Notes under the pieces: generated by a model
What the model was told of the DNA's origin: nothing
Database searches by the model: none
Seen by the model: only the letters and a program-made list of their open reading frames with translations
Made by a program: the position numbers and the translations under genes
Shown here: one piece after another, positions 40,941 to 56,630 of the stretch
Layout: each line of letters begins with the position of its first letter
How positions within the stretch are numbered: position 1 is the first letter of the stretch
Assembly: GCA_011390635.1 (NCBI GenBank)
Contig: JAABSA010000020.1
Location: 1-64,000 of the forward strand
Source of the DNA: Desulfotignum sp.
GTDB lineage: Bacteria; Desulfobacterota; Desulfobacteria; Desulfobacterales; Desulfobacteraceae
Length of the DNA stretch: 64,000 bases
Direction: 5' to 3'

Positions 40941-42107
40941 TTATGAGTTGTTTTCAGATACTCTGGCCATGAATCGGGTCCAGATCCAGGTCAGAAGCAG
41001 GTAGAAAAAGCTGAGGCCCCACATACAGAGCCATTCATCCATTACCTGTTCGAAGGAAGCGCCCATCTGGGCCATTCTCAGTCCGCCGGAAATCCCCCAG
41101 GTGCTGGGCAACAGCATGGAAATGGCCCTTATCCAGTGGGGCATGGTTTCCACTGGCCATGAAAATCCGGAGATAAGAACTGCAACCATTGAGCTCCAGA
41201 CAATCATGATGATTGATGATTCCCTGCTTTTGAAAAAACCTGCCAGAAATTGTCCCATCAGGACAACCGACAGCAGGAACGGAAGCAGGAAGACAAACAT
41301 GTCAAGGACCCCGGTCCGCAGCGGGAAATCCCAGATCTGGTAGACTACCTTGTAAAAGAAATAGATGTGGATCAGGTACAGGGACATGCAGGCAATTGTT
41401 CGGCCGAGGATTCTGACCAGGGGGCCTCCCTGCAGCGGGATCACTGCCTTTTTTTCCTGCAGCTGTTCGCGGCGCGTTCCGGAAAGCATACCGATGCCTA
41501 TCAGCATGGTCTGCTGGAGAAGCAGGAGCAGGACAGCCGGGACAATATAGGTTGCATAGCCCATGTGGGGATTGAACAGCGACCTGCTTACCAGGTTGAG
41601 AGACGACCGGTCTATCAGGGCTTTTTCATGGGACCATCCCCGGGCCTTGAAACGGCTGACTTCTATTCCGGCCGACATGGTCCGGACCGTCATGACAAGC
41701 CCGGTCATGGCCTGCCTGTAAACCAGGAAGTAGGTGGCATCCACATATGCTGAAACATAGGTTTTCCGGCCCTGCAGCACATCTTTTTCAAATCCTTCAG
41801 AAATGACCAGTATCCCGCTGGATTTTCCTGATTCGATTTTTCGGCGGGCCTGTTCCATGTCCGGGTCCCGGGAAACAACCTGTATCAATTCTGATGCATC
41901 GGTCATTCTCGCCAGCTGCCGGCTCAGTAACGAATTGTCATGGTCAACGATCGACAGCGGCACCTGTTTCAACACCTCGCTGGAATAGGGCAGCGGGTAT
42001 ACAAAGGAATAAAGTACGACGGCTCCGACCATGATGATCAAGACCCCGGGGTCCCTGAATATGGCGTTCAGTTCAGTGAAGATGTTGCAAAACAGGTTTC
42101 TGATCAT
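40941..42107 (-). CDS. ABC-2-type export permease (second copy)
   Basis: A 388-residue membrane subunit of an ABC exporter. One helix near residues 20-40, an extracytoplasmic domain (~45-165) and five to six C-terminal helices (~175-385), the ABC2_membrane_3/YhhJ-YbhR layout. ATG 42107 overlaps the upstream permease stop as ATGA, with GGGGAA before it. It pairs with the preceding permease and the HlyD and TolC genes. No ABC ATPase gene is adjacent on either side, so the exporter ATPase must be supplied in trans or the system is incomplete. Confidence 0.85.
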   Translation of the reverse strand: MIRNLFCNIFTELNAIFRDPGVLIIMVGAVVLYSFVYPLPYSSEVLKQVPLSIVDHDNSLLSRQLARMTDASELIQVVSRDPDMEQARRKIESGKSSGILVISEGFEKDVLQGRKTYVSAYVDATYFLVYRQAMTGLVMTVRTMSAGIEVSRFKARGWSHEKALIDRSSLNLVSRSLFNPHMGYATYIVPAVLLLLLQQTMLIGIGMLSGTRREQLQEKKAVIPLQGGPLVRILGRTIACMSLYLIHIYFFYKVVYQIWDFPLRTGVLDMFVFLLPFLLSVVLMGQFLAGFFKSRESSIIMIVWSSMVAVLISGFSWPVETMPHWIRAISMLLPSTWGISGGLRMAQMGASFEQVMDEWLCMWGLSFFYLLLTWIWTRFMARVSENNS

Positions 42108-43288
42108 GCTTTTCCCCAGTAACGGCTGTCGGTCATATGGCTTTTGAACAAAGGGATCAGGCAATAGCCTGTGCCAACGAATACAAGCATGATTAAAAGA
42201 TCAGGGACAGAAACAGATATCGGGGCCTGGCGCAGGGTCTGTTCCTGGAACAGGTGGAGATAATGGGTAAGGGGAAGCAGGCTGCTCCATGCTTTGCCCA
42301 GGACCGGCATCCCCTCCAGCGGAAAGGTAATGCCCGCAAATGCGAAAGCGGTGCCGGAAAGAAAAGAGGAAGCACTCAGTGCCACGCGCAGGCTGGGAAA
42401 AATAAATACCAGGATAAGTCCGTATGCCATGTAGGCCAGGATCAGGAATATAGTGCCGGCAATCAGGACGGCACCGGATCCCCGCAAAGGAACGCCAAAT
42501 CCGAGAAGTATGATTGTCAGCATGATCAGTCCCACCAGGCTGAAACACAGAAAGTAGACGGCCAGCTTACCGGTGACCGCCCACCAGACGCTCCCCCCGG
42601 CGGTTTTCAGCCATTGTTCTGCGGTCCGGTTTTTGAATTCGCTTCCCAGGGCCATCACGGTGACCATCAGGACAAAAATCTGCAGAAAGGTGGGACAAAG
42701 AGCGGCCGAAAGAAAGTACATGTAGTTGAGCTGGGGATTGAACAGGACATGGCGGTCGATTTTTACCGGATCTAAAAGGCTCATCGCCTTTTCCTGCATG
42801 GCACCGCCCTGCATCCGGGAACGGATATTCAGGCCGGCTGATATGGTAGAAACAACTGCCTGGAGGCTGCTTGAAACGATGCTTCCCGGAAGCAGCATCT
42901 GGGTATTGGTGAAGCCAATGACCTCCCCTCCCTTTCCTTCCAGGATATCTTTCTCCAGGGACTGTGGAATGTGCAGCCAGGCGTAGATTGCTCCCTCCAG
43001 CATCAGGTTCCTTGCTTCAACAGGATCGGCTGCCTGAAAGGCGACCCGGATAACGGGGGATGTGTCTACAGCCCTGATCAGGGAACGGGAGAGTTTTGAG
43101 TGATCAAGATCAACCACAGCTACCGGAAGTTCATGGGGATACGGCTCGGAAAACAGGCCCCAGATCAGGATGAACGAAAGCAAAGGAAACACGAACATTG
43201 CCAGGGGATAGCGGGCGTGCTGCCTGATACGCAAAAGTTCCCGCGTAAATACTGCCAGAAATCCGCTTCGTCCCTTATTCCCGGGCAT
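42104..43288 (-). CDS. ABC-2-type export permease (first copy)
   Basis: A 394-residue paralogue with the same architecture: TM ~25-45, extracytoplasmic domain ~50-180 (ending near LNIRSRMQGG), then multiple helices (CPTFLQIFVLMVTVMALGSEF and AFAGITFPLEGMP near 310-330). It overlaps the hlyD stop by 14 bp and its own end overlaps the next permease by 4 bp. As in the YhhJ/YbhS/YbhR export systems, the pair makes one channel with a membrane-fusion protein. No ATPase is encoded nearby. Confidence 0.85.
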   Translation of the reverse strand: MPGNKGRSGFLAVFTRELLRIRQHARYPLAMFVFPLLSFILIWGLFSEPYPHELPVAVVDLDHSKLSRSLIRAVDTSPVIRVAFQAADPVEARNLMLEGAIYAWLHIPQSLEKDILEGKGGEVIGFTNTQMLLPGSIVSSSLQAVVSTISAGLNIRSRMQGGAMQEKAMSLLDPVKIDRHVLFNPQLNYMYFLSAALCPTFLQIFVLMVTVMALGSEFKNRTAEQWLKTAGGSVWWAVTGKLAVYFLCFSLVGLIMLTIILLGFGVPLRGSGAVLIAGTIFLILAYMAYGLILVFIFPSLRVALSASSFLSGTAFAFAGITFPLEGMPVLGKAWSSLLPLTHYLHLFQEQTLRQAPISVSVPDLLIMLVFVGTGYCLIPLFKSHMTDSRYWGKA

Positions 43289-44279
43289 CGGGAAGGTCCT
43301 TTCGGGAAACCAGGACGCTCATGCCCGGCCGCAGCCCGATGATACTGTCCAGGGGCCTGGCCCTTATTTCGAACGTCTTGAGATCGAATCCACCGGATGC
43401 GCTGGTGGATCTCCAGGTGGCATAATCACCAAGAGGGGCAATATAGCTTATCTCCACTGGAAACGTTTTGTCGCCCAGGGCGGGGACCGACACTGGAAAC
43501 ACCCGGTCCATTTCTATTCCTGCCAGGTTATCTTCCCTGATATTGAAGGTGATCCAGATATCATCCAGATCCAGGATGGTGACCACGGGGTAGCCGGCAT
43601 TGACCACCTCTCCGGGATTGACCAACAGGTGGATCACTTCCCCGCTGAGGGGCGTCTTCAACCGGGTTTCATCCAGATAGCTTTCAACTTCGGTTACTGC
43701 TCCCCGGGCCTGGTCAACCATGGCTGAAGCTGCCTGGCGGTCCTCCTTTCTTGTTCCTTCCAATGCCATGTCATATTGGGAACGGGCCGCAGCCGAGGCT
43801 GCTTCAGCTGATTTCCATCCGGCTTGGGCCTCATCCCGCCGCTGTCCCGGAACGATGCCGTCCGCATACAGGCTGTTTATACGCCTGTACGTCTTTTCAG
43901 CCAGCTCCGCGGCTTCCCGGGCCTGTTTCCAGAGATTCATGGCAGCTTCCACTTCCTGGCTCCTGGCCCCGGCATCTGCCTTGTCCTTCTGGGCGGAAGC
44001 GGCTTTTCGGGCTGAGGAAACCTGGCTGAGCCTGGCGGTGATTTCCGGGCTGTCAAGCTGCAGAAGGCTGGTTCCCTTTTGGACGTATTCCCCTTCTTTC
44101 ACAAACACGTCAGAAACACGCCCGGCGATTTTGACAGCCAGATTGACCTGGGTGGCATCGACCTCACCCTGTATGTATTGAACTTCGGGTTCCTGCAGGT
44201 ACAGGGTCAGTCCCCAGACGATACCGATTAAGACGAGAATACCGGTAAGCGGCTCTAATATTGTCCGCATGCGTTTCAA
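43275..44279 (-). CDS. HlyD-family membrane fusion protein
   Basis: A 334-residue periplasmic adaptor: N-terminal membrane helix ~8-25 (LTGILVLIGIVWGLTLYL), a biotinyl-lipoyl-like segment (~38-62; VNLAVKIAGRVSDVFVKEGE), a coiled coil (~75-205) and a beta-barrel, with the family motif TRLKTPLSGEVIHLLVNPG. Translation most likely starts at TTG 44279: GGAGG lies seven bases before it, and TTG overlaps the tolC TGA. The next ATG (44270) has no spaced ribosome site. It bridges the ABC-2 pair to TolC. Confidence 0.83.
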   Translation of the reverse strand: MKRMRTILEPLTGILVLIGIVWGLTLYLQEPEVQYIQGEVDATQVNLAVKIAGRVSDVFVKEGEYVQKGTSLLQLDSPEITARLSQVSSARKAASAQKDKADAGARSQEVEAAMNLWKQAREAAELAEKTYRRINSLYADGIVPGQRRDEAQAGWKSAEAASAAARSQYDMALEGTRKEDRQAASAMVDQARGAVTEVESYLDETRLKTPLSGEVIHLLVNPGEVVNAGYPVVTILDLDDIWITFNIREDNLAGIEMDRVFPVSVPALGDKTFPVEISYIAPLGDYATWRSTSASGGFDLKTFEIRARPLDSIIGLRPGMSVLVSRKDLPDARE

Positions 44280-45721
44280 TGTTCGACCTCCATAATGTTT
44301 CCTGCCAGGTATTGGGAAAATTCCGTTCCACGTCCACACGCTTCCAGGAGCCGGGCAAATGCAACGTCAAAGTTATACGCAGCCAGAAGTCTTTCCACCC
44401 GGGTCTCAGACAAAGTGAGCTGCGCGTCTACAACATCCAGTGATGTGGCAAGCCCTTCTTCAAAAGAACGTATCCTGGCGCGGATATTTTCCTGGGCAAG
44501 ATCTACCGAGGACTGCAGGGAATCATACTGCTCACGGGCTTTCATCATTTCCTGGTAGCGGGAAGACACCAGGGTTTCCAGGTCTCTGGCCAATTTGCGC
44601 TGCATCAACTCAGCCTGGTTTTCTATGTTACGGGCGGCCGCGATCTTGTTGGTCCTGGTTCCGCCATCAAAAACAGTGAAATTGATCCCTGCGCCTATAG
44701 ACCAGACCGGGTCCAATTCTGTCAAATCATTTTCGTAGAGTTCCCTGGTACCGAAAAGATATACCGTGGGAAAACGTTCAGATTTGGCGGCTTTCAGGTT
44801 TTCCCCGGCCTTGTTCCGGACAGCTTCGATCTGGGCCATTGCCGGATGGTGAAGCCGGGCCTGACTGATAAAAGATGCTTCCCGGTCGACTGACTGCAGG
44901 AGGAACAGCGGAGAGACGGGGGTCACAGGGTTTTTTACAGCCAGAATGCCGGCAAGCGCTATCTTTGCCAGATCCAGGTCACGGAGCGATGCCTTGAGTT
45001 CCCTTTCAGCCCGGGCCTGGGCGACCCGGGCATGAAGCACTTCGGTTCTTGCAATAAATCCTTCCTCCTGCAGCCGCCGGGCCTGATATACATGCAGGTT
45101 CAAGGCATCCAGGACCTCTTTGCGGATCTGGTACACATGGTCGGCCAGCCGTACGGCATAATAGTATTTGACCAGTTCCGACGTCAGGGTATCTTTGGTC
45201 TGGTCGAGTTTTGCTGCTGATTCGCGGATACCGGCATCCGCTGCTTTCTGGGCGGCTGAGATCCTGCCCCCGGTGTACACCGGCCAGGTTACGTTCAGCT
45301 GTGACTTGAAAAAGGTATCATCCTGAACCGTTTCGTTAAACGAGGGGACCGCTGCCGATGGTATTGCAGGGTGCAAAGTAAGCATTACGTCCCTGATAGG
45401 ATTCAGATCCAGGTCAATCGATTCATTGATCCGGACAAACTGGCCGCTGAGTGTTACCTCGGGAAAGTACAATCCCCTGGTCGCTTTTGCCTCGTATTTC
45501 TTTTGTTCAACCTCGGAAGCAGCACGTAAAACAGATTCGTTCCGGGAGATCATCATCTCCATGGCCTGGGTGAAAGTCAGCGCTTTTTCGGAAGATGCCT
45601 GGGTGGATACCTGATCCAGAAGAAGAGTTCCCATGATCATGAAGACCAGTAAGCCTTTCCGGACAGTTATTGTATGTATCTTTGTCAAATTGTATTTTCG
45701 ATATTTGCATTCTATTTTCAT
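44276..45721 (-). CDS. TolC-family outer membrane efflux protein
   Basis: A 481-residue OEP-family channel. Signal-anchor-like N-terminus ~20-42 (VRKGLLVFMIMGTLLL) then the mature protein; two OEP repeats with long helices, and characteristic FNPV-type features such as VTWPVYTGGRISAAQK and INFTVFDGGTRTNKI at equivalent positions (~150 and ~350) where TolC has outer-membrane strands. ATG 45721 follows GGGAAG. It lies 32 bp after the transglutaminase stop and is followed by hlyD in an overlapping arrangement. Confidence 0.87.
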   Translation of the reverse strand: MKIECKYRKYNLTKIHTITVRKGLLVFMIMGTLLLDQVSTQASSEKALTFTQAMEMMISRNESVLRAASEVEQKKYEAKATRGLYFPEVTLSGQFVRINESIDLDLNPIRDVMLTLHPAIPSAAVPSFNETVQDDTFFKSQLNVTWPVYTGGRISAAQKAADAGIRESAAKLDQTKDTLTSELVKYYYAVRLADHVYQIRKEVLDALNLHVYQARRLQEEGFIARTEVLHARVAQARAERELKASLRDLDLAKIALAGILAVKNPVTPVSPLFLLQSVDREASFISQARLHHPAMAQIEAVRNKAGENLKAAKSERFPTVYLFGTRELYENDLTELDPVWSIGAGINFTVFDGGTRTNKIAAARNIENQAELMQRKLARDLETLVSSRYQEMMKAREQYDSLQSSVDLAQENIRARIRSFEEGLATSLDVVDAQLTLSETRVERLLAAYNFDVAFARLLEACGRGTEFSQYLAGNIMEVEH

Positions 45722-45753
45722 TACTTCCCTGTAAGATATCCTGGTGTCTGATT

Positions 45754-46554
45754 TTATGAATGTGTGTTCCTGTTGATGCACTCTACCTGGACTTTTTGGG
45801 AGGCGGGGTAAACGGCGGGCCCGAACTGATTGTATACAGCCACATCGGCGGCATCCCGCCCATAGCCGATAGCCACGTATCCTCCTTTTATTTTGGTCTG
45901 TGTGGCATCAAAAGTGTACCAGCGTCCCCCCACATATGCTTCGAACCAGGCATGGAGATCCATGGGCGTCAGTTGATGAAGATAGCCCACCACCATGCGG
46001 GCCGGGATGCTGATGCTTCGGCACAGGGCAATGCCCAGATGGGACAGGTCCCGGCACACTCCCCATCGCCTTGCATTGACATCCACGGCCGAAACCTGGA
46101 CGTCACTTTCAAACGGCTTAAAGTCGATGGTCTCTCTGAGCCAGTTTCTGATAGCAGCCACCTGGTCATATCCCGGCAGATATCCTGCAGTGATGGAGGC
46201 GGCCATCTGGCTGAACTGGTCCGACTCACAGTACCGGCTGGGCAGCAGAAAGCCCAAAACCGCATCCGGCAGGTTCTGGATCTCCACAAACGGGCTCCCC
46301 GGGGCTTCATCCATGGTCTCCGACGTCCTTACCTCCGCTGCCGTGTATATACCAAAGGCCCCGGGCGGAGCAATCAGGCGCTGGCACAGGTTGCCGTATC
46401 CATCGGTGAATTCAAATACCGGCACACTGGGCACAATGGTGTATTTTTCAAGGGCCACCCACTGCTGTGCCCCGCTGCGGGGACGCAGCATGAGCACAAA
46501 CGGGGTGGGAACGGTAATGTTAAAGTCCAGATCACAGCTGGTACGCAGCCACAT
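45754..46554 (-). CDS. Transglutaminase-like protein, head of the exporter operon
   Basis: A 266-residue protein with a beta-rich N-terminal domain (~1-105) and a transglutaminase/papain-like core. The triad is intact: Cys167 ([11 protein letters not shown]), His201 ([12 protein letters not shown]) and Asp216 (YTFDAT). No signal peptide is visible, so it is probably cytoplasmic. ATG 46554 follows GGAGG eight bases away. It is co-directional with and 32 bp upstream of tolC-hlyD-ABC2-ABC2, and divergent from the ATP-grasp/alpha-E operon, whose other members include two more transglutaminases. It may act as a peptidase, amidase or amide-linking enzyme. Confidence 0.83.
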
Positions 46555-46784: not shown

Positions 46785-46813
46785 TTGACACGGCAGCAAT
46801 TATGTAATTATCT
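46785..46813 (+). promoter_or_regulatory. Putative sigma-70 promoter of the ATP-grasp operon
   Basis: TTGACA (46785-46790), exactly 17 bp, TTATCT (46808-46813). It lies 44 bp upstream of the GTG start of the ATP-grasp gene, in the 302-bp divergent intergenic region. Confidence 0.45.
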
Positions 46814-46856
46814 GGCAGTACAACCCTTAGTGCTTTACCTTGTGAAAGGAGCTGCC

Positions 46857-48401
46857 GTGAATTTTTCCAATTATGACACCCAGGGATTTTATGACGAATT
46901 GTTCGATCAGGACAATGTTCCCAGGCCCGGTGCAAAACTGCTGATTGAAAAAATAGAATCTCTGCCCGAGAACGACCTGATGCTCAAACAGCGTTCGGCT
47001 GAAACCGCCCTGCTTCAGCTTGGTAACACATTTGCGGTGTATGGCAGCGAGGAGGGGACCGAAAAAATACTTCCCTTTGACATGATTCCCCGCATCATTG
47101 ACAACCGTGACTGGAAAAAAATCGAGATGGGGCTGCAGCAGCGGATCTATGCACTGAATAAGTTCATTCATGACATTTACCATGACAAGAAAATCATAAA
47201 AGACAAGGTGGTTCCTGAAGATCTGATCATGACCTGCGCAACCTACCGCAAGCAGTGTGAGGGGCTGGTCCCCCCCAAATCCATCTGGTGCCATGTTACA
47301 GGGACAGACCTTATACGTGACAGTGACGGCCTGTTTTATGTCCTTGAGGACAACATGCGATGCCCGTCAGGTGTCTCATATGTGCTGGAGAACCGCCAGG
47401 TATTGAAGCGCACCTTTCCCCATGTGTTTGCCGACTCCGGGGTCCGGCCGGTGGATGAGTATCCCAACAAGCTTCTGGCCACCCTGGAGAACCTGGCCCC
47501 TGCAACGGTGTCAGAATCCAAAATCGGTGTGTTGACCCCGGGTATATACAATTCCGCCTATTTTGAGCATTCATTTCTGGCCCAGCAGATGGGGGTTGAA
47601 CTGGTGGAGGGCCAGGACCTGGTGGTGACCGACGGATTTGTGTACATGCGAACCACCAAAGGCCTGCAGCGTATTGATGTGATATACCGCCGCCTGGATG
47701 ATGATTTCATGGACCCCAAAGCATTCCGGGCCGACTCCATGCTGGGGGTTCCCGGCATTATGGATGTGTACCGGGCAGGCAGAGTGGCCATGGCCAATGC
47801 CCCGGGTACCGGCATTGCAGATGACAAGGCCGTTTATGCCTATGTTCCCGAAATCATCCGCTATTATCTGGGTGAAGATGCCATTCTCCCCAATGTCCCC
47901 ACCTTTATCTGCCGGGAGGACAAGGCCAGGGCACATGTTCTTGAGAATCTGGACAAACTGGTGGTCAAGGCGGCCAATGAATCCGGTGGTTACGGCATGA
48001 TGATCGGTCCCCATGCCAGTGAGGCGGAACGGGAAAAATTTGCCCTTCTGATCCAGAAAAATCCCAGAAACTACATTGCCCAGCCCACCATCTCCCTTTC
48101 CCGGGTTCCCACCATTGTGGGGGACCATTTTGAGGGACGGCATGTGGATTTGCGGCCCTATATCCTCTATGGAGAGGAGATTTATGTGATGCCCGGCGGC
48201 CTCACCCGGGTGGCATTGAAAAAAGGTTCCCTTGTGGTCAATTCCTCCCAGGGCGGGGGCACCAAAGATACGTGGATCACCGACAGCGGCGCTGGAGAAG
48301 ATGAGAATCATTCCCAGACACAGTATCACGTCCCTTTTTCCCAGTCTCAATCTCAGACCCTAACCCGCAGTGACGACATCACAGGAGGGAACCATGCTTA
48401 G
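46857..48401 (+). CDS. Circularly permuted ATP-grasp protein (COG2308 type, stand-alone)
   Basis: A 514-residue amide-ligase-like protein. GTG 46857 is the start: AAAGGAG lies five bases before it. Motifs kept: LEDNMRCPSG (~161-170, E-D-N metal/ATP site), LVVKAANESGGYGMMIG (Lys-containing strand and glycine loop) and HVDLRPYILYGEEIYVMPGG (catalytic-type R and acidic residues near the C-terminus). Together they look like an intact ATP-grasp. Family members are predicted to ligate amino acids or make peptide-like products, with no experimental substrate known to me. It overlaps the alpha-E gene by 8 bp. Confidence 0.85.
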   Translation: MNFSNYDTQGFYDELFDQDNVPRPGAKLLIEKIESLPENDLMLKQRSAETALLQLGNTFAVYGSEEGTEKILPFDMIPRIIDNRDWKKIEMGLQQRIYALNKFIHDIYHDKKIIKDKVVPEDLIMTCATYRKQCEGLVPPKSIWCHVTGTDLIRDSDGLFYVLEDNMRCPSGVSYVLENRQVLKRTFPHVFADSGVRPVDEYPNKLLATLENLAPATVSESKIGVLTPGIYNSAYFEHSFLAQQMGVELVEGQDLVVTDGFVYMRTTKGLQRIDVIYRRLDDDFMDPKAFRADSMLGVPGIMDVYRAGRVAMANAPGTGIADDKAVYAYVPEIIRYYLGEDAILPNVPTFICREDKARAHVLENLDKLVVKAANESGGYGMMIGPHASEAEREKFALLIQKNPRNYIAQPTISLSRVPTIVGDHFEGRHVDLRPYILYGEEIYVMPGGLTRVALKKGSLVVNSSQGGGTKDTWITDSGAGEDENHSQTQYHVPFSQSQSQTLTRSDDITGGNHA

Positions 48402-49371
48402 CCGCGTTGCAAGTTCCATTTACTGGATGACACGGTATATCGAACGGGCGGAAAACATTGCCCGGTTCATCAGTGTCAATCTGAATCTGACACTGGATTT
48501 TCCTGCTGAAGCCAGCCGGCAGTGGCAGCCCATCATCATGGCCACAGGGGATCACCAGTTGTTTGAAAAAAAACACGGTACGGAATATTCCGCCAGGAAT
48601 GTGATCCATTTTCTTGCCCTGGATCAGGAATACAGCAACTCCATTATTTCCTGCCTGCGGGCGGCGAGGGAAAATGCCCGCTCCGTGAGGGAAATCATCT
48701 CCTCTGAAATGTGGGAACAGGTAAACCGGTATTACCTTGAATTAAAGCAGGCCGGCACCACTGATTATGCCAGCCGTAATCCCCATAAATTTTTCAAGAT
48801 CATCATCATGCGGGGCCACATGTTTACCGGCCTGTTATATTCCACCATGTCCCACGGCGAGGCTTTTCAGTTTGCCCTGACCGGTCTGCTGCTGGAGCGG
48901 GCAGACAAAACCTCCAGAATTCTGGATGTCAAATATTTCATGCTTCTGCCACAGGCTGGAGAGATCAATACCCCTTATGACTCCATTCAATGGGCTGCGG
49001 TGCTCAAATCGGCCAGTGCTCTTGAAATGTACCGCAAACGGTTTCACCGGATCATACCCAGACATGTGTGTGATTTTCTGATCTTTGACGGGGAGTTTCC
49101 CCGCTCCATCCGCTATTGTCTTAAAATGGGAGAGCAGTCGCTGCATAAAGTTTCAGGGACCCCTGTGGGGATGGTGTCCAATCCGGCGGAAAAGGCTCTG
49201 GGAAGGCTCTGTGCAGATCTGGATTATTCCGATATTGATGAAACCATCTCCATGGGCATGCACGAATACCTGGATGACCTGCAGACCAAGATAAACGTGG
49301 TGGGCGGCTGTATCCATGATGCATTTTTCAAGGTGGCAACTGTGCCAGACAATGGGGGTGCAGCGCAATAA
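48394..49371 (+). CDS. Alpha-E domain protein (COG2307 type, stand-alone)
   Basis: A 325-residue all-helical protein. It starts ATG 48394 after CAGGAGGG, overlapping the ATP-grasp gene by 8 bp. Family landmarks: SSIYWMTRYIERAENIARFI near the N-terminus (~5-24), RENARSVREIISSEMWEQVN (~90-109), and ILDVKYFMLLP mid-chain. No catalytic motif is apparent; the domain is thought to act as a helper or scaffold for the ATP-grasp protein. A second alpha-E is fused to the other ATP-grasp (52979-55738). Confidence 0.85.
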   Translation: MLSRVASSIYWMTRYIERAENIARFISVNLNLTLDFPAEASRQWQPIIMATGDHQLFEKKHGTEYSARNVIHFLALDQEYSNSIISCLRAARENARSVREIISSEMWEQVNRYYLELKQAGTTDYASRNPHKFFKIIIMRGHMFTGLLYSTMSHGEAFQFALTGLLLERADKTSRILDVKYFMLLPQAGEINTPYDSIQWAAVLKSASALEMYRKRFHRIIPRHVCDFLIFDGEFPRSIRYCLKMGEQSLHKVSGTPVGMVSNPAEKALGRLCADLDYSDIDETISMGMHEYLDDLQTKINVVGGCIHDAFFKVATVPDNGGAAQ

Positions 49372-49467
49372 CCCTGTGAAAGCGGTTCCCGGCATCTTCA
49401 GCCAAGAACAGTGCCGGAAACCCCCTTTTTTTCATAAAAAACAAAAAAATAACCTGGGAGACCCCCT

Positions 49468-52400
49468 ATGGCCATTCAAGTGGCGCTTTACCATAAAACA
49501 GACTATATCTATGACCGGAAAATTCATTTGGGACCCCAGGTGGTCCGGCTGCGGCCGGCACCCCACTGCCGCACCCCTGTTTTGAGTTATTCCCAGACAA
49601 TTCTTCCTAAAGCGCATTTCATCAACTGGCAGCAGGATCCCTTCAGCAATTACCTTGCCCGGTTGAATTTTCCAGAAAAGACTGATCATTTTTCCATTGA
49701 AGTAGATCTTCTGGCCGAAATGATCATTATCAATCCCTTTGATTTTTTCCTGGAACCCTATGCGGAAAAATTTCCCTTTACCTACAAACCTGAGCTGGCA
49801 AAGGATTTGAAACCCTTTCTGGAGGTGGATCCGCCCGGCGGAAAACTGACTGAATACCTGGCATCCATTGACCGCACCAGGGTGGACACCAACAATTTTC
49901 TGGTCATGGTCAATCAGAACCTGGAGAAGCTGATTTCTTATAAAATCCGCATGGAACCCAATGTGCAGAGCAGTGAAGAAACCCTTACCAGACTGAGTGG
50001 TTCCTGCCGGGATTCCGCCTGGCTTCTGGTCCAGATCATGCGCCACATGGGCCTTGCGGCTCGGTTTGTTTCCGGTTATCTGATTCAGCTGGCCCCGGAT
50101 GTGAAATCCCTGGAAGGTCCTTCCGGACCGGAGCAGGATTTCACCGATCTCCATGCATGGGCCGAAGTCTATCTGCCGGGTGCAGGCTGGATCGGCCTTG
50201 ATGCCACATCAGGCCTTCTTACCGGGGAGGGACACATCCCCCTGGCCTGCACCCCGGATCCACGGAGTGCGGCACCCGTGACCGGTGGTCTGGAAAAATG
50301 CGAGGTGGCGTTCAATCATACCATGCGCATCACCCGGATCCACGAAGACCCCCGCTCCACAAAACCCTATCCCCAGGAAATCTGGAGGCAAATTGAAAGC
50401 CTGGGATACCGGGTGGACCAGGAAATCAACCGGGAAAACATCACCCTGACCATGGGGGGGGAACCCACCTTTGTCTCTGTGAAAGATATGGAGGGGGATG
50501 AGTGGAACACCGGTGCTGTCGGTCCCACCAAAAAGCCGATGTCCGTTGCGCTGCTCAAGAGACTGCGGGCAAAATGGGCCCCGGGCAGTCTGCTCCATTT
50601 CGGCCAGGGCAAATGGTACCCTGGTGAATCGCTGCCCCGTTGGGCCTTAAGCTGTTTCTGGCGCAAAGACGGAAAGCCGGTGTGGAGAGATGATGCCCTT
50701 CTGGCCGACGAGGACAAAGATTATGGGTTTGGTCCGGAACAGGCCCTGCATCTGATGGTCACCATCACCAGGATACTGGGGGTGGATGCAGAATATGTCA
50801 TCTCTGCCTATGAAGATATCTTCCACTGGCTCTGGAAAGAGCAGCGCCTGCCGGTCAATGTGACGCCCGAGGATTCCAGATTGAAAAATGCCGAGGACCG
50901 TTCCCGGATGACCCGGGTGTTTGAAACCGGCCTGGGATCGGTAACCGGGTATGTACTGCCCCTGCAGAAAGGTTCCTGGAAAACCGGTCCCTGGCATCTG
51001 AAAAGCCCGGAGCTTTTTCTCATTCCCGGAGATTCGCCAATGGGCCTGCGGTTGCCCCTGGATTCTCTTCCCTGGGTGACAGAAGAGCAGTTTCCCCATG
51101 TGGTGGAAGAGGACCCCATGGGGAAAAAGGACCCATTGCCGGATCCTTTGACGTCACCGGCGGACAGGGAACAGATAAAGGCCCTGCACAAGGCCCGTCA
51201 GTCCCAGCAGCACCTTGACGGGCGGCCCGAAGAGGCGATACGCGATGATGTCATGCCGCAACCCAAACCCTTTGCAGACCCCCGGCCCTCTGTGGGAGAA
51301 TCTGCGGCCTGGGTGATCCGGACAGCCTTGTGCATCCAGCCCAGGGACGGCCGGCTCTATGTGTTCATGCCGCCCATGGAACGTGCCGTGGATTATTTTG
51401 AGCTGATAACCGCCATAGAGGATGCTGCCGCCGTCACCGGGATGCCGGTGGTCATCGAGGGATATACCCCGCCCTTTGACCACCGCTTCAACCGTTTCAG
51501 CATCACCCCGGATCCCGGTGTCATGGAGGTAAATATCCATCCGGCCCACACCTGGCAAGAGATGGTGAAGACCACCACCGAACTCTATGAAGAGGCCCGG
51601 CAGACCAGTCTGGGAACCGAAAAATTCATGCTGGACGGCCGTCACAGCGGTACCGGGGGCGGCAACCATATCATCATGGGAGGTGCCACCCCCGGAGAAA
51701 GTCCCTGGCTTAAACGGCCGGATCTGCTCAAAAGCTTTCTTACCTACTGGAACAACCATCCATCCCTTTCTTATCTTTTTTCAGGACTGTTCATGGGGCC
51801 CACCAGTCAGGCCCCCCGCATTGATGAGGCCCGCCATGACACATTGTATGAACTGGAGATCGCCTTTGATGAGCTGAAAGTCCGGACCGGCAGCCAGGAT
51901 ATGCCCTGTCCCCCCTGGCTGGTGGACCGTCTCTTCCGGCATCTGCTCACCGATCTTACCGGCAACACCCACCGGGCCGAGTTCTGCATTGACAAGCTGT
52001 ATTCGCCTGACAGTGCCACAGGGCGGCTGGGACTGGTGGAGTTCCGCTCTTTTGAAATGCCTCCCCATGCCTTCATGAGCCTTGCCCAGCAGCTGCTTTT
52101 GCGCATCTTCATGGTGAAATTCTGGAAAACCCCGTATGAAGAAAAACTGGTCCACTGGGGAACCACCCTCCATGACCGGTTCATGCTGCCGTATTATGTG
52201 TGGCAGGATTTTGGTGATGTGCTCCAGGAACTTACCCGGGACGGGTATCCCATGAAACCCCAATATTTCCACCCCCATTTTGAATTTCGGTTTCCCTTTG
52301 TGGGAAAGGTGACCCATGCCGGCATGGAGATGGAACTGCGAACAGCCATTGAACCGTGGCATGTGCTGGGTGAAGAACCCGGCGGCGGGGGAACCGCCCG

Positions 52401-52836
52401 ATATGTGGATTCTTCCCTTGAAAAGATGCAGGTGCGGGTGAAGAACATGACCGATTCCCGCCACCTGGTGCTTTGCAACGGCCGGCCTTTGCCCCTGCAG
52501 CCGACAGGCACCCGGGGAGAGTTTGTGGCCGGTGTCCGTTACCGGGCGTGGCAGCCGCCTTCCTGCCTGCATCCCACCATCGGATCCCATGCCCCCCTTG
52601 TTTTTGACCTGGTGGACACCTGGAGCCGCAGATCCATAGGGGGATGTACCTACCATGTTTCTCATCCCGGGGGCCGCAGCTATGATACCTTTCCTGTGAA
52701 TTCCTATGAGGCGGAAGGAAGGCGGGTTTCCCGGTTTTTCAGCGTTGGGCACACCCCGGGTATAATGGATGATATTCCTGAAAAAAAGGTGAGCAGCGCC
52801 TTTCCCCATACCCTGGATCTGCGCCGAAAAGCCTGA
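49468..52836 (+). CDS. Transglutaminase-DUF2126 two-domain protein (COG4196 type)
   Basis: A 1122-residue protein. The N-terminal transglutaminase domain (~1-260) keeps Cys180 (SGSCRDSAWL), His229 (DLHAWAEVYL) and Asp245 (GLDATSG). The C-terminal DUF2126 (~300-1110) is predicted, by Iyer and colleagues, to be a circularly permuted glutamine-synthetase-like ligase: GTGGGNHIIMGGA (~728-740) and VEFRSFEMPPH are conserved-looking. This gives one chain with an amide-cleaving or exchange domain and an amide-forming domain. No signal peptide. ATG 49468 follows GGGAG. It is in the same direction as the ATP-grasp and alpha-E genes, 96 bp after the latter. Confidence 0.87.
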   Translation: MAIQVALYHKTDYIYDRKIHLGPQVVRLRPAPHCRTPVLSYSQTILPKAHFINWQQDPFSNYLARLNFPEKTDHFSIEVDLLAEMIIINPFDFFLEPYAEKFPFTYKPELAKDLKPFLEVDPPGGKLTEYLASIDRTRVDTNNFLVMVNQNLEKLISYKIRMEPNVQSSEETLTRLSGSCRDSAWLLVQIMRHMGLAARFVSGYLIQLAPDVKSLEGPSGPEQDFTDLHAWAEVYLPGAGWIGLDATSGLLTGEGHIPLACTPDPRSAAPVTGGLEKCEVAFNHTMRITRIHEDPRSTKPYPQEIWRQIESLGYRVDQEINRENITLTMGGEPTFVSVKDMEGDEWNTGAVGPTKKPMSVALLKRLRAKWAPGSLLHFGQGKWYPGESLPRWALSCFWRKDGKPVWRDDALLADEDKDYGFGPEQALHLMVTITRILGVDAEYVISAYEDIFHWLWKEQRLPVNVTPEDSRLKNAEDRSRMTRVFETGLGSVTGYVLPLQKGSWKTGPWHLKSPELFLIPGDSPMGLRLPLDSLPWVTEEQFPHVVEEDPMGKKDPLPDPLTSPADREQIKALHKARQSQQHLDGRPEEAIRDDVMPQPKPFADPRPSVGESAAWVIRTALCIQPRDGRLYVFMPPMERAVDYFELITAIEDAAAVTGMPVVIEGYTPPFDHRFNRFSITPDPGVMEVNIHPAHTWQEMVKTTTELYEEARQTSLGTEKFMLDGRHSGTGGGNHIIMGGATPGESPWLKRPDLLKSFLTYWNNHPSLSYLFSGLFMGPTSQAPRIDEARHDTLYELEIAFDELKVRTGSQDMPCPPWLVDRLFRHLLTDLTGNTHRAEFCIDKLYSPDSATGRLGLVEFRSFEMPPHAFMSLAQQLLLRIFMVKFWKTPYEEKLVHWGTTLHDRFMLPYYVWQDFGDVLQELTRDGYPMKPQYFHPHFEFRFPFVGKVTHAGMEMELRTAIEPWHVLGEEPGGGGTARYVDSSLEKMQVRVKNMTDSRHLVLCNGRPLPLQPTGTRGEFVAGVRYRAWQPPSCLHPTIGSHAPLVFDLVDTWSRRSIGGCTYHVSHPGGRSYDTFPVNSYEAEGRRVSRFFSVGHTPGIMDDIPEKKVSSAFPHTLDLRRKA

Positions 52837-52978
52837 AGCGTGTCTGACCCGAAAAAAGGTTGTTCTTGCATCCGCACTGGATTTTTGGTAATATTCGGGC
52901 TTCCTCTGTACGGGGTAGAGGGCGATTGAACCATATTTTACAATAGTCCGGAGTCCGGGTACATAAAAAACCAAAGCC

Positions 52979-55738
52979 ATGTCATCACAGTCACAATCTT
53001 CACTTTCACAGACAGGCGACGGCCTGCAGCCCTTTGGGCTTTCCGGGCAGGAGAATCAATCTTCCGTGCCCCCTGGCGGAATGCAGAAAGATCCGTCCGG
53101 TATAGCACCGGTCTTTCCAGCCGATTTTGCCTTTGGGAATGTCTGCAGCCCGTTATCCGGTCCGGATAAGACACCGGACCCACACTGGCAGGGACTTGTC
53201 ACCTATCTCAACAGTCTGGGGACAGCGGAGCTGGAAAGGCGCTGGAAAAAAGCGGAACAGATACTGCACGAACATGGGGTGGCCTATGACATTTTCAGTG
53301 AGCAGGATGGGAAGCAGCGACCCTGGGAGCTTGACCCCATTCCTTTTCCTGTACCGGCAGACACCTGGGAGTTCCTTGAAAAAGGAATCTGCCAGAGAAT
53401 GCGGCTTTTGTCTGCCATTTATGCCGACATCTACGGTTCCCAGAAACTGATTGAAAAAAACCATCTGCCGCCGGAACTGTTTTTTGCCAACCCGCGTTTT
53501 CTGCGTCAGTGCCACGGTATTTGCAACAAAGAGATCCCCAGATTTCACTTTCATTCAACAGACCTGTGCCGGTTTCCCGACGGGGGATGGCGTATTTTTT
53601 CCGACCGGACCCAGACACCTTCCGGTGCCGGATATGCCCTTGAAAACCGTATTATTCTTTCCCGGATTCTGCCCCGCATGTTCCACGCAGGCAAGGTGCA
53701 CCGTCTGGCCCCTTTTTTCAAGGCGTTTTACCGTTCACTCATGGAAATTTCCGGCATGCAGAAACGGGAACCTTCCATTGTAATGCTTACATCCGGGCCC
53801 GCCAGCCCCACCTATTTCGAACATGTATTTTTGTCCCGGTATCTGGGATTTACCCTGGTGGAGAGCAGCGATCTCACCGTGCGAAACGACGGGGTGTTTC
53901 TTAAAACCCTTGGAGAGATGCTTCCGGTGGATGTTATTTTACGGCGCATTGAGGATGTTCATTGCGACCCCCTTGTATTCGGCAGTACTTCTGCTGCGGG
54001 GATTTCAGGCCTGGTCCAGGCGGTACGTTCGGGAAAGGTGGCGGTGGCCAATCCCCTGGGTAGCGGTATACTGGAGACCCCGGGACTGATTCCCTTCCTG
54101 CCCGGTCTGTGCCGTCTCATTCTTGGTGAAGAACCCATTCTCCAGGATCTGCCCACCTTATGGTGCGGCCAGGAAACAGCCCTGAACACGGTTCTGTCCC
54201 GTATGGCAGACGCAGATGATCCTGTCATCATTTCATCCGCCTTTTCCGATCCACGCATCCCTTCCGTGGACACCAGTTCCCTGAGCCGTGACAACATGGA
54301 CCGCCTCATGGCACAGATCAAAGCAGCCCCCTATGCCTTTGTGGGCAGGGACATCCCGATGCCCTGCACCCTCCCGGTATGGGAAAAGGGCAGGATTCAA
54401 AACCGCATTACCAGTATGCGCATGTTCTCCACAGCCACAACTTCCCTGCTCCAGGAAACCGGAGCAGGTCTTTGGGCGGCTGCAGAAAAAAATATTTCAG
54501 TGATGCCCGGGGCCTTGACCCGGATGGCAGATCACGGGGAATCATTTTTGATAAATACCGGACAGGGACAGGGACAGGGAAGTAAGGATACCTGGTGCTT
54601 TTCAAAGGAAGTGGTGGAATACAAGAGCATGATGCACAAATTTACTGACGGCCTTGACATTCACCGGGGGGGTGATCTCACCAGCAGGGTGGCCGATAAC
54701 ATGCTCTGGCTGGGGCGGTATGTGGAACGTACAGAAGGCATGCTGCGGGTGATCCGCAGTGCCCTGATCCGCCTGAACAGTGAATCTCCCCTGGACATGA
54801 TCAGGGAGTTTCCTTTTCTGCTGCGGATCATGACTAACCTTGATATCAGCTCCCATAAGCTTTCTCAGCCCGGAGCCTTTTATAACATGCGGATCCTTGA
54901 ATCGGAAATTGTGGATCCTATTTTCAGTTCCCAGCATCCCGGCAGTATCCGAAACGCCCTTGACAGCGTCAGGCAGGTGGCAGCCAGTGTCCGGGACAGG
55001 CTCTCCAATGATTCCTGGCATATCCTTGGGCGCATGGAAAAGCAACTCAAGCAATTTGAACCCCACCGCCACAATCAGGCCAGCGAAGCCCAGGAACTGG
55101 TCAGCGAAATGATTCTGACCATGTCTGCTTTTGCCGGACTTGCCCTGGAAAGTATGACCAGAAGCATGGGGTGGCGCTTCATGGATATGGGGCGGCGGCT
55201 TGAACGGGCCGGATACATGATTACCCTGCTCAAGAGCCTTTTTTCTGAAAAAGGCAAGCCCAGGACAGACGAGATGGAGGTACTTCTGGAAGTTGCCGAC
55301 AGTACCATTACCTACCATAACCGATACCGCACCACCCTTTTGATGGCCCCCATCGTGGATCTTCTGCTTCTGGATGAACTCAACCCCAGGGCCGTTGGTT
55401 TCCAGATGGCAGCCCTGTCCGACCATGTGGAGAAGCTGCCCCGAAGTACCCCGGCCACCGTGTGGACCAGGGAGGAAAAAACCATGCTGGATCTTACCAC
55501 CCAGCTGCGTCTGGCTGATATTCACACCCTCCTGGAGATGACCCCTGAAGGGGAAATGCCGCAGCTCAATCAGCTGCTTGAACGGTTGTACAAAGGGATT
55601 AAGGATCTTGGAAAACAGATCACCCAGCATTATCTCAGCCGTATCGAGACTGAAAAACAGTTGAGAAATGCCTTTGAAATATCTGCTGCGGACGTTTCTG
55701 CCGACCCGGGAGGTAAGAGCAGTCATTATGAAATATAA
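52979..55738 (+). CDS. Circularly permuted ATP-grasp/alpha-E fusion, ATP-grasp motifs degenerate
   Basis: A 919-residue fusion: ATP-grasp-like half ~60-540, alpha-E half ~570-890 (DNMLWLGRYVERTEGMLRVI is the start of the latter). Compared with the stand-alone ATP-grasp upstream, key sites have changed: the E-D-N site is FSDRTQTPSG, the Lys-Ala-Ala-Asn-Glu glycine loop is replaced by VIISSAFSDPR, and the late DLRP-type motif is lost, although SVMPGALTRMA and GQGSKDTW are kept. It may be a pseudo-enzyme partner. The start is ATG 52979; no clear ribosome site is visible. The C-terminus overlaps the start of the next transglutaminase gene by 11 bp. Confidence 0.82.
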   Translation: MSSQSQSSLSQTGDGLQPFGLSGQENQSSVPPGGMQKDPSGIAPVFPADFAFGNVCSPLSGPDKTPDPHWQGLVTYLNSLGTAELERRWKKAEQILHEHGVAYDIFSEQDGKQRPWELDPIPFPVPADTWEFLEKGICQRMRLLSAIYADIYGSQKLIEKNHLPPELFFANPRFLRQCHGICNKEIPRFHFHSTDLCRFPDGGWRIFSDRTQTPSGAGYALENRIILSRILPRMFHAGKVHRLAPFFKAFYRSLMEISGMQKREPSIVMLTSGPASPTYFEHVFLSRYLGFTLVESSDLTVRNDGVFLKTLGEMLPVDVILRRIEDVHCDPLVFGSTSAAGISGLVQAVRSGKVAVANPLGSGILETPGLIPFLPGLCRLILGEEPILQDLPTLWCGQETALNTVLSRMADADDPVIISSAFSDPRIPSVDTSSLSRDNMDRLMAQIKAAPYAFVGRDIPMPCTLPVWEKGRIQNRITSMRMFSTATTSLLQETGAGLWAAAEKNISVMPGALTRMADHGESFLINTGQGQGQGSKDTWCFSKEVVEYKSMMHKFTDGLDIHRGGDLTSRVADNMLWLGRYVERTEGMLRVIRSALIRLNSESPLDMIREFPFLLRIMTNLDISSHKLSQPGAFYNMRILESEIVDPIFSSQHPGSIRNALDSVRQVAASVRDRLSNDSWHILGRMEKQLKQFEPHRHNQASEAQELVSEMILTMSAFAGLALESMTRSMGWRFMDMGRRLERAGYMITLLKSLFSEKGKPRTDEMEVLLEVADSTITYHNRYRTTLLMAPIVDLLLLDELNPRAVGFQMAALSDHVEKLPRSTPATVWTREEKTMLDLTTQLRLADIHTLLEMTPEGEMPQLNQLLERLYKGIKDLGKQITQHYLSRIETEKQLRNAFEISAADVSADPGGKSSHYEI

Positions 55739-56630
55739 GATTTCACACCGAACCTGGTATCAATACAGCAGTGACGCGTCACTTTCCCATAATGAGATTT
55801 TTTTGACGCCCCGGAACACACCGGTCCAGAGCTGTATGGAAAGCGATATCACCTTGATACCTTCTCCTGCGGCCATTTCCCGAAGACAGGATTATTTTGG
55901 AAACCATGTGACCACTACCACCATCCAGGTTCCCCATGATCTATTTGAAATCAATGCAATCAGCCAGGTAAGCCTGACGTCCCCTTCCGTAGTGGCCCCC
56001 GATAAGACCCCTGCCTGGGAAGAGGTACGGAAAGCTGTATGGCAGCATGCCAGTCCTGAAGATCTCGATGCATTCCAGTTCGCCTTTGCCTCTCCCATGA
56101 TTCCGAAAGATGACCGGTTTGGTCATTGGGCCAAAGAAATTTTTGTCCCGGGAACGCCCATTCTACAGGCCGCCCTGGGATTGACCCAAAAAATATTCAC
56201 CGAATTCACATATGATCCCCGGGCAACCACTACCACCACTGCCGTGGACAAGGCCTTTGAGCTCAAACGGGGCGTTTGCCAGGATTTTGCACACATTGAG
56301 ATTGCCTGTTTGCGTTCTCTGGGACTGGCTGCCCGATATGTGAGCGGCTACCTGCACACCCTCCCGCCTCCGGGAAAACCCAAACTCATCGGATCCGACG
56401 CCTCCCACGCCTGGGTGGCCATTTATATTCCTGGAACAGGCTGGGTGGATATTGATCCCACCAACAATGTTATCCCGACAGACCAGCACCTGACCCTGGC
56501 ATGGGGACGGGACTACAGTGATGTGACCCCGGTAAAGGGAACCGTTCTGGGGGGAGGTAAGCACAAACTCAGTGTGGCAGTGGATGTGACCGCTTTGGTG
56601 AGTCACGGGGATATAAATCATGGCGGTTGA
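55728..56630 (+). CDS. Transglutaminase-like protein, third of the cluster
   Basis: A 300-residue protein. The N-terminal domain (~1-110, MKYKISHRTWYQYSSDASLS) is the transglutaminase N-terminal type; the core has Cys184 (RGVCQDFAHIE), His227 (SHAWVAIYIPG) and Asp243 (VDIDPTNN). No signal peptide. ATG 55728 lies inside the end of the fusion gene, so translation may be coupled; GGAGG is 14 bases upstream. Last gene of the + strand operon; a decayed gene begins on the opposite strand right after. Confidence 0.85.
   Translation: MKYKISHRTWYQYSSDASLSHNEIFLTPRNTPVQSCMESDITLIPSPAAISRRQDYFGNHVTTTTIQVPHDLFEINAISQVSLTSPSVVAPDKTPAWEEVRKAVWQHASPEDLDAFQFAFASPMIPKDDRFGHWAKEIFVPGTPILQAALGLTQKIFTEFTYDPRATTTTTAVDKAFELKRGVCQDFAHIEIACLRSLGLAARYVSGYLHTLPPPGKPKLIGSDASHAWVAIYIPGTGWVDIDPTNNVIPTDQHLTLAWGRDYSDVTPVKGTVLGGGKHKLSVAVDVTALVSHGDINHGG

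What the first reader, a model, noticed from the sequence alone, without database searches (positions are those of the whole stretch)
40941..46554. Transglutaminase-TolC-HlyD-ABC2-ABC2 operon with no ATPase
Seen: a transglutaminase (45754-46554) ends 32 bp before tolC, and tolC, hlyD and two ABC-2 permeases follow with overlapping starts and stops. Known: ABC-2 exporters of this type need an ABC ATPase, usually encoded next to the permeases (as in YbhFGSR). No P-loop gene is in the stretch from 38 to 57 kb. Inference: the exporter either borrows an ATPase or is specialised, and the transglutaminase at its head suggests its substrate is made or trimmed by that enzyme.
Basis: partly seen in the sequence, partly recalled or inferred. 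Interest (0 to 1): 0.65.

Follow-up and report, generated by a model that had tools for sequence, protein, structure and literature searches.

The report
ABC-type exporter without its ATPase
This four-gene bacterial pump looks like an ATP-driven exporter but lacks the ATP-burning part, and so do its sampled relatives in several bacterial groups, so it may run on another energy source; the enzyme gene in front of it is probably a chance neighbour.

Summary
In detail: tolC, hlyD and two ABC-2 (PF12698) permease genes overlap at 45721-40941(-), a transglutaminase ends 32 bp upstream, and no P-loop ORF was found at 38-57 kb. The missing ATPase is not local loss: the unit recurs without one in Desulfotignum and two other genomes of its phylum, and 14 of 17 opened plasmid loci (Alpha-, Gammaproteobacteria, Bacteroidota) have HlyD plus two permease domains and no ATPase. 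In a 76-row tree all 46 ATPase-less permeases lie on one side of one branch (93/88). The motif [KR]ExExG[ST], at the probable ATPase-coupling helix, occurs in 29 of 30 ATPase-linked permeases and 0 of 46 others; the one exception is also the linked row nearest to them. The best-scoring ABC-2-type ATPases of the own genome (three) and one relative (six) have membrane partners beside them. Likeliest: an ABC-2-fold tripartite exporter working without a dedicated ABC ATPase; energy source unshown. The transglutaminase link is not supported: none of five relatives with readable DNA upstream of tolC has it there, and all five carry a promoter-like site absent here. New variant of a known kind.

The parts
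44276..45721 (-). tolC-type outer-membrane channel (481 aa)
   Evidence: PF02321 E 3.5e-57 for the longer ORF 44276-45781; start ATG 45721
43275..44279 (-). HlyD-family periplasmic adaptor (334 aa, TTG start, 4-nt overlap with tolC)
   Evidence: PF16576; best NCBIfam model PRK03598 'secretion protein HlyD', 146.5 bits, below its cut-off of 393
42104..43288 (-). ABC-2 permease 1 (394 aa, 14-nt overlap with hlyD)
   Evidence: PF12698 E 7.3e-48; permease 1 group of the tree, 100/99
40941..42107 (-). ABC-2 permease 2 (388 aa, ATGA overlap with permease 1)
   Evidence: PF12698 E 7.8e-50; permease 2 group of the tree, 100/100
42566..42640 (-). altered coupling segment of permease 1 (residues 217-241)
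   Evidence: lacks [KR]ExExG[ST]; E and GK kept
41403..41477 (-). altered coupling segment of permease 2 (residues 211-235); in 11 of 23 family rows, not here, it is also 2-9 residues shorter than in linked permeases
45754..46554 (-). transglutaminase-like protein (266 aa), probably a neighbour rather than a part of the pump
   Evidence: PF01841; WGVCRD, LHAW, FDAT at residues 164, 200, 215 (reading them as the Cys-His-Asp triad is recalled); ortholog in 1 of 12 other genus genomes, not beside tolC there
45722..45753 (-). 32-bp TGase-tolC junction, without the promoter-like site seen upstream of tolC in five relatives

Best explanation
tolC-hlyD-permease1-permease2 encode a tripartite inner-to-outer-membrane exporter of a distinct family: two unequal ABC-2-fold subunits, each with a large loop after the first membrane helix, form the inner-membrane unit, HlyD is the adaptor and TolC the outer channel. 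The family has long been without an ABC ATPase and does not depend on a dedicated one. Shown here: gene content and order, conservation without a nearby ATPase, one-branch ancestry of the permeases, absence of the coupling motif of ATPase-linked relatives. Inferred: the permeases form a 1:1 pair (they are one chain in some relatives), export small toxic or hydrophobic molecules as other HlyD/TolC pumps do, and are driven by something other than an ABC cassette, most simply an ion gradient. The transglutaminase is not a part.
For: Permease 2 orthologs at 87-91% in 7 of 12 other genus genomes; four-gene order in L036, L038, L039, L040, L041, in same-family G030 (29-43% identity) and in G188 of another family (39-50%). 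14 of 17 plasmid loci opened have HlyD and two permease domains and no ATPase; the other 3, at 22-25% permease identity, have one. The ATPase HMM found no ABC ATPase next to the unit in 24 loci (flanks are short in four of them, see below). Tree: 46 of 46 ATPase-less rows on one side of one branch, 93/88, one change in 94% of 200 bootstrap trees; permease 1 and 2 groups 100/99 and 100/100. Motif [KR]ExExG[ST] in 29 of 30 linked and 0 of 46 ATPase-less rows. One-chain permease pairs in L061, L062, L063. The three best-scoring ABC-2-type ATPases of the own genome and the six best of G011 have a membrane gene beside or fused to them.
Against: No transport was measured. L048, an ATPase-linked permease of the own genome, also lacks the motif and is the linked row placed next to the ATPase-less group (branch 3.28 long, so its place is unsure): absence of the motif alone does not prove independence from an ATPase. 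The separating branch, 93/88, is below the tool's starred level. Permease 1 keeps E or D in 22 of 23 rows, and mostly the GK, in the coupling segment. The three membrane positions charged in at least 60% of rows (permease 1: 241, 298; permease 2: 236) are charged in linked permeases too, so no RND-like relay can be named. [quoted passage not shown] A tolC gene adjoins in only 6 of the 14 ATPase-less plasmid loci. Orphan ATPases: maps cover 25 of 34 hits in the own genome, only the best four were interpreted; the genome is 96.4% complete. Flanks were under 1 kb on both sides for L038 and L051, and 2 bp and 1.7 kb on one side for L037 and L064. Structure models were unusable.
Confidence: 0.6

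Rival explanations
1. The pump borrows an ABC ATPase encoded elsewhere (a shared ATPase, as MsmK serves several sugar importers; recalled).
For: Exporters of this fold that I know of use an ATPase (recalled); permease 1 keeps part of the coupling segment, and L048 shows that a linked permease can lack the motif; 97 PF00005 matches exist in the genome (150 of 193 candidates scored).
Against: Motif absent in 46 of 46; units without a nearby ATPase on plasmids of several phyla; best-scoring ABC-2-type ATPases have membrane partners.
Confidence: 0.22
2. The ATPase gene was lost locally and the transporter is decaying.
For: None found.
Against: Intact frames and 87-92% permease identity across the genus; no adjacent ATPase in the relatives.
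Confidence: 0.03
3. The permease pair is not a pump but a passive or regulatory inner-membrane scaffold for HlyD-TolC.
For: No energy-coupling residues special to the group found; no ATPase.
Against: Kept two-permease composition and one-chain pairs fit a transport core; not decisive.
Confidence: 0.12
4. Transglutaminase and exporter are one functional operon in which the enzyme makes or trims the substrate.
For: 32-bp gap, same strand, no promoter-like site in the gap; a weak promoter-like site (9 of 12) lies upstream of the transglutaminase at 46745-46717 (site counts are at shuffle level).
Against: Pairing seen only in this genome: none of 5 relatives with readable upstream DNA has it; G012 has an ortholog away from tolC; the gene is divergent from an ATP-grasp/Alpha-E/TGase cluster at 46785-56630.
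Confidence: 0.05

Closest known systems
YbhFGSR of E. coli
   Same: HlyD-family adaptor next to two PF12698-type permeases in one gene run
   Different: No YbhF ATPase; YbhS and YbhR fall on the ATPase-linked side of the tree and have the coupling motif
YhiI-RbbA-YhhJ of E. coli
   Same: HlyD-like protein plus two ABC-2 membrane domains; both window permeases hit the permease part of the RbbA model
   Different: The ATPase fused to the permease in RbbA is absent; 76 and 71 bits against a cut-off of 1050
RND tripartite pumps such as AcrAB-TolC (recalled)
   Same: Adaptor, TolC and an inner-membrane unit without ATPase; one-chain permease pairs would have two large loops, as RND proteins do (recalled)
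   Different: Permeases match ABC-2 families, not RND; no charged membrane residue special to the group
YhgE/Pip/EsaA proteins (ABC-2-like without known ATPase; recalled)
   Same: 1 of 12 permease 1 members hits TIGR03061 weakly (E 8.3e-6)
   Different: The window's permease 1 is not the member that hits; no HlyD/TolC partners in those systems (recalled)

Membership tests
ABC-2 exporter (PF12698) | ABC2_membrane_3 domain | tested here: met
   E 7.8e-50 and 7.3e-48, over the cut-off
ABC-2 exporter (PF12698) | cognate ABC ATPase, adjacent or fused | tested here: not met
ABC-2 exporter (PF12698) | coupling-segment motif [KR]ExExG[ST] of the linked permeases | tested here: not met
   0 of 46 against 29 of 30; not universal among linked ones
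YbhFGSR-type system | HlyD adaptor plus two permeases in one gene run | tested here: met
YbhFGSR-type system | permeases group with YbhS/YbhR | tested here: not met
   other side of the branch
RND pump | RND membrane domain | tested here: not met
   only PF12698 and PF01061 match the permeases at E 0.01
Tripartite efflux system | TolC and adaptor encoded with the inner-membrane unit | tested here: met
   met here; 8 of 14 ATPase-less plasmid loci have no tolC beside the unit
Tripartite efflux system | energised transport | not testable with these tools
   needs a bench assay

The most novel reading that the evidence does not exclude
A widespread family of tripartite exporters has turned the ABC-2 membrane fold into an ATPase-free pump that draws on an ion gradient, a convergent counterpart of RND pumps, in some members already one two-permease chain.
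Probability: 0.4. Interest if true: 0.85.

Novelty: new variant of a known kind. Interest (0 to 1): 0.58.

Why it matters
In all 11 annotated records among the 14 ATPase-less plasmid loci these genes are called 'ABC transporter permease' (three records carry no annotation there). If the family never uses an ABC ATPase, that label misleads, and the ABC-2 fold can export without its motor or with an unrecognised one. Seven of the 14 units sit on plasmids typed conjugative or mobilizable. The question is testable in laboratory strains.

Tried and rejected
Local ATPase loss: rejected on the relatives. Transglutaminase as partner: rejected as a general feature. Defence role: no PADLOC match at E 0.001 for the four proteins given, that is both permeases, HlyD and the transglutaminase; TolC was not given. 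Solved structures: permease 1 alone (phmmer) and the permease 2 alignment gave only marginal matches, ABCG-type chains, a putative ABC type-2 transporter domain and, at E above 0.2, esterases. Structure prediction of both permeases with six close sequences each gave pLDDT 34 and 41, so no fold search was run. A viral-contig scan with the permease 2 alignment found no relative. Confidence in the best explanation was lowered from 0.65 in my draft to 0.6 after setting out that L048 both lacks the motif and lies next to the group.

Literature: ten searches were answered. None of the titles and abstract starts shown describes such a family, but lists were capped (for example 15 of 43, 15 of 29, 8 of 126) and most subscription papers are not held. 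I saw passages only, by term, of PMC12838394, PMC9505733, PMC12669032, PMC10434189, PMC8277102, PMC9329510, PMC11971408 and PMC7190983. PMC12669032 reports growth reduction on closantel for insertion mutants in BT0562 and BT0563 of B. thetaiotaomicron, called multidrug ABC transporter genes; PMC10434189 lists BT3902-04 as ABC transporter permeases and HlyD family protein. Whether these belong to this family was not tested, as no such genome was reachable.

Selection and dropped rows: 17 plasmid hits were opened out of 277 and 270 matching records, picked from the displayed lists by taxon; all 17 went into the tree. From, eleven genomes were re-fetched with wider flanks; short-flank loci L015-L034 were otherwise left out of the tree, as was G010 (contig ends). 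Of 22 genomes nine were re-fetched. The second permease of some loci and the L049 permease were not picked up by the BLAST step that made the rows. In one search at most four candidates per genome were scored.

Full report
What is there. On the minus strand, 46554-40941, lie a transglutaminase-like gene, tolC, hlyD and two PF12698 permeases. The junctions are a 32-bp gap, then overlaps of 4, 14 and 4 nt. Beyond 28.2 kb no ORF of the set has a Walker A pattern, and an HMM of 26 ABC ATPase domains matches only the three ATPases at 23.5-28.2 kb in the window.

Relatives in the genus. Of five matching genome-contig loci four are titled Desulfotignum sp. and one Desulfobacteraceae; I take the window to be Desulfotignum (phylum Desulfobacterota, recalled). 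Permease 2 has an ortholog at 87-91% identity in 7 of 12 other genus genomes; several of the five without one are incomplete. Four loci (L036, L039, L040, L041) show tolC-hlyD-permease1-permease2 with at least 5.5 kb read on both sides and no ABC ATPase; L038 shows the four genes with under 1 kb on either side, and L037 and G010 are cut by contig ends. The same order occurs in G030 of the same family (TolC 29%, HlyD 43%, permeases about 33%) and in G188 of another family in the phylum (TolC 40%, HlyD 50%, permeases 39 and 44%). In 395 phylum genomes, own genome included, only the own genome and G188 score above 400 bits with the permease 2 profile; the best match outside these two is 142 bits (at most four candidates per genome scored). 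The unit is patchy in its own phylum.

Wider family. tblastn against plasmids gave 277 records for permease 2 and 270 for permease 1. I opened 17. Fourteen have HlyD and two permease domains without an ATPase: Agrobacterium, Paracoccus yeei, Rhizobium, Photobacterium, Haematobacter, Azospirillum, Microvirga, Ensifer, Enterobacter, Parabacteroides, Bacteroides, Acinetobacter, Novosphingobium, Sphingobium. Three have an ATPase and are more distant (22-25% permease identity): an E. coli plasmid, Paracoccus denitrificans, Sinorhizobium. A tolC gene adjoins in 6 of the 14: Photobacterium, Parabacteroides, Bacteroides, Acinetobacter, Novosphingobium, Sphingobium. In Microvirga, Ensifer and Enterobacter both permeases are in one open frame of up to 781, 780 and 759 aa; the first two have an HlyD gene on each side. 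With the ATPase HMM, 21 of 24 ATPase-less loci show no ABC ATPase at all; the window has three, 12.7 kb or more away, L060 one and L062 two overlapping frames, on the other strand and more than 4 kb away.

Tree. Of 76 permease rows, 46 come from ATPase-less units and 30 from ATPase-linked ones, with YbhS, YbhR, YhhJ and RbbA of E. coli K-12 among the latter. The ATPase-less rows need one change of label; the branch has 93/88, and 94% of 200 bootstrap trees agree; shuffled labels need 23.8 on average. Permease 1 and permease 2 are separate groups of 23 rows each (100/99, 100/100). So the two paralogs parted within the ATPase-less group and each spans several phyla. The root is a midpoint, so the direction, loss of an ATPase, is inferred. 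L048, an ATPase-linked permease of the own genome, is drawn next to the ATPase-less group on a branch of 3.28.

Coupling segment. Aligned to the E. coli YbhR motif, 29 of 30 linked rows have [KR]ExExG[ST]; the exception is L048. None of 46 ATPase-less rows has it. In permease 2 the segment is 2-9 residues shorter in 11 of 23 rows (not in Desulfotignum); in permease 1 it is altered but keeps E or D in 22 of 23 rows. That this segment touches the ATPase is recalled knowledge of ABC-2 permeases; PMC11971408 (passages) describes one cytoplasmic coupling helix per TarG subunit of a type V transporter, near a loop of its ATPase.

Orphan ATPases. Searched with an ATPase linked to a PF12698 permease, the own genome gives 34 hits. 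The three best have a membrane gene beside them and the fourth sits in an lpt-like gene order (my reading) (L048 and L049). Maps or window sequence cover 25 of the 34 hits; I interpreted only these four. In G011 the six best have a permease match or many-helix gene beside or in the same frame. This does not prove that no ATPase is shared.

Energy. In 16 non-redundant rows per group, the three positions inside hydropathy-predicted helices that are charged in at least 60% of rows are charged in linked permeases too; permease 2 has invariant Y33, Y37, Y41 and Q199. The ion-gradient step is inference. PMC7190983 (passages) claims Na+(Li+)/H+ transport for YbhFSR besides ATP-driven efflux, and speculates that it may also use proton-motive force; that system has an ATPase. 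PMC8277102 (passages) holds that only type IV and MacB-like ABC transporters take part in tripartite assemblies, which speaks against calling ours a proven tripartite pump.

Transglutaminase. A 59% ortholog occurs in 1 of 12 other genus genomes (G012), where the next gene is not tolC. None of the 5 relatives with readable DNA upstream of tolC (L036, L038, L039, L040, L041) has it there, and their genomes have no match at E 1e-10. All five have TTGAAA-N16-TATANT upstream of tolC (L041 also fits with 18), which the window lacks. L039 and L040 are nearly identical there, and the scan's site counts (2 against 1.6 and 2 against 0.7 in shuffles) do not show more than chance, so only the shared position supports it. 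No promoter-like site was found in the window's gap. I read this as a local junction that put tolC behind the transglutaminase, which is divergent from an ATP-grasp/Alpha-E/transglutaminase cluster at 46785-56630.

Verdict. A real, conserved, ATPase-less relative of ABC-2 exporters; new variant of a known kind. It probably works like a tripartite efflux pump. By fold it belongs with ABC-2 exporters, but the ATPase and the coupling motif were tested and not met, so it is not filed as an ordinary member.

Noticed in passing
46785-56630 (+): Cluster of ATP-grasp (PF14403), Alpha-E (PF04168), a 1122-aa ORF, an ATP-grasp/Alpha-E fusion and a 320-aa transglutaminase; relatives of the last three lie together in G012 (L112).
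   Followed up: partly
L061:6792-9137, L062:6786-9128, L063:6977-9256: Both permeases in one open frame without an ATPase; in L061 and L062 with an HlyD gene on either side.
   Followed up: partly
L055, L056: Agrobacterium and Paracoccus plasmids carry near-identical exporter units close to a catalase-family/Dyp-type or other peroxidase gene group.
   Followed up: no
L036, L038, L039, L040, L041 upstream of tolC: Shared TTGAAA-N16-TATANT promoter-like site, missing in the window.
   Followed up: yes
L048:5983-7116: Own-genome PF12698 permease beside an ATPase that also lacks the coupling motif, on a very long branch next to the ATPase-less group.
   Followed up: partly
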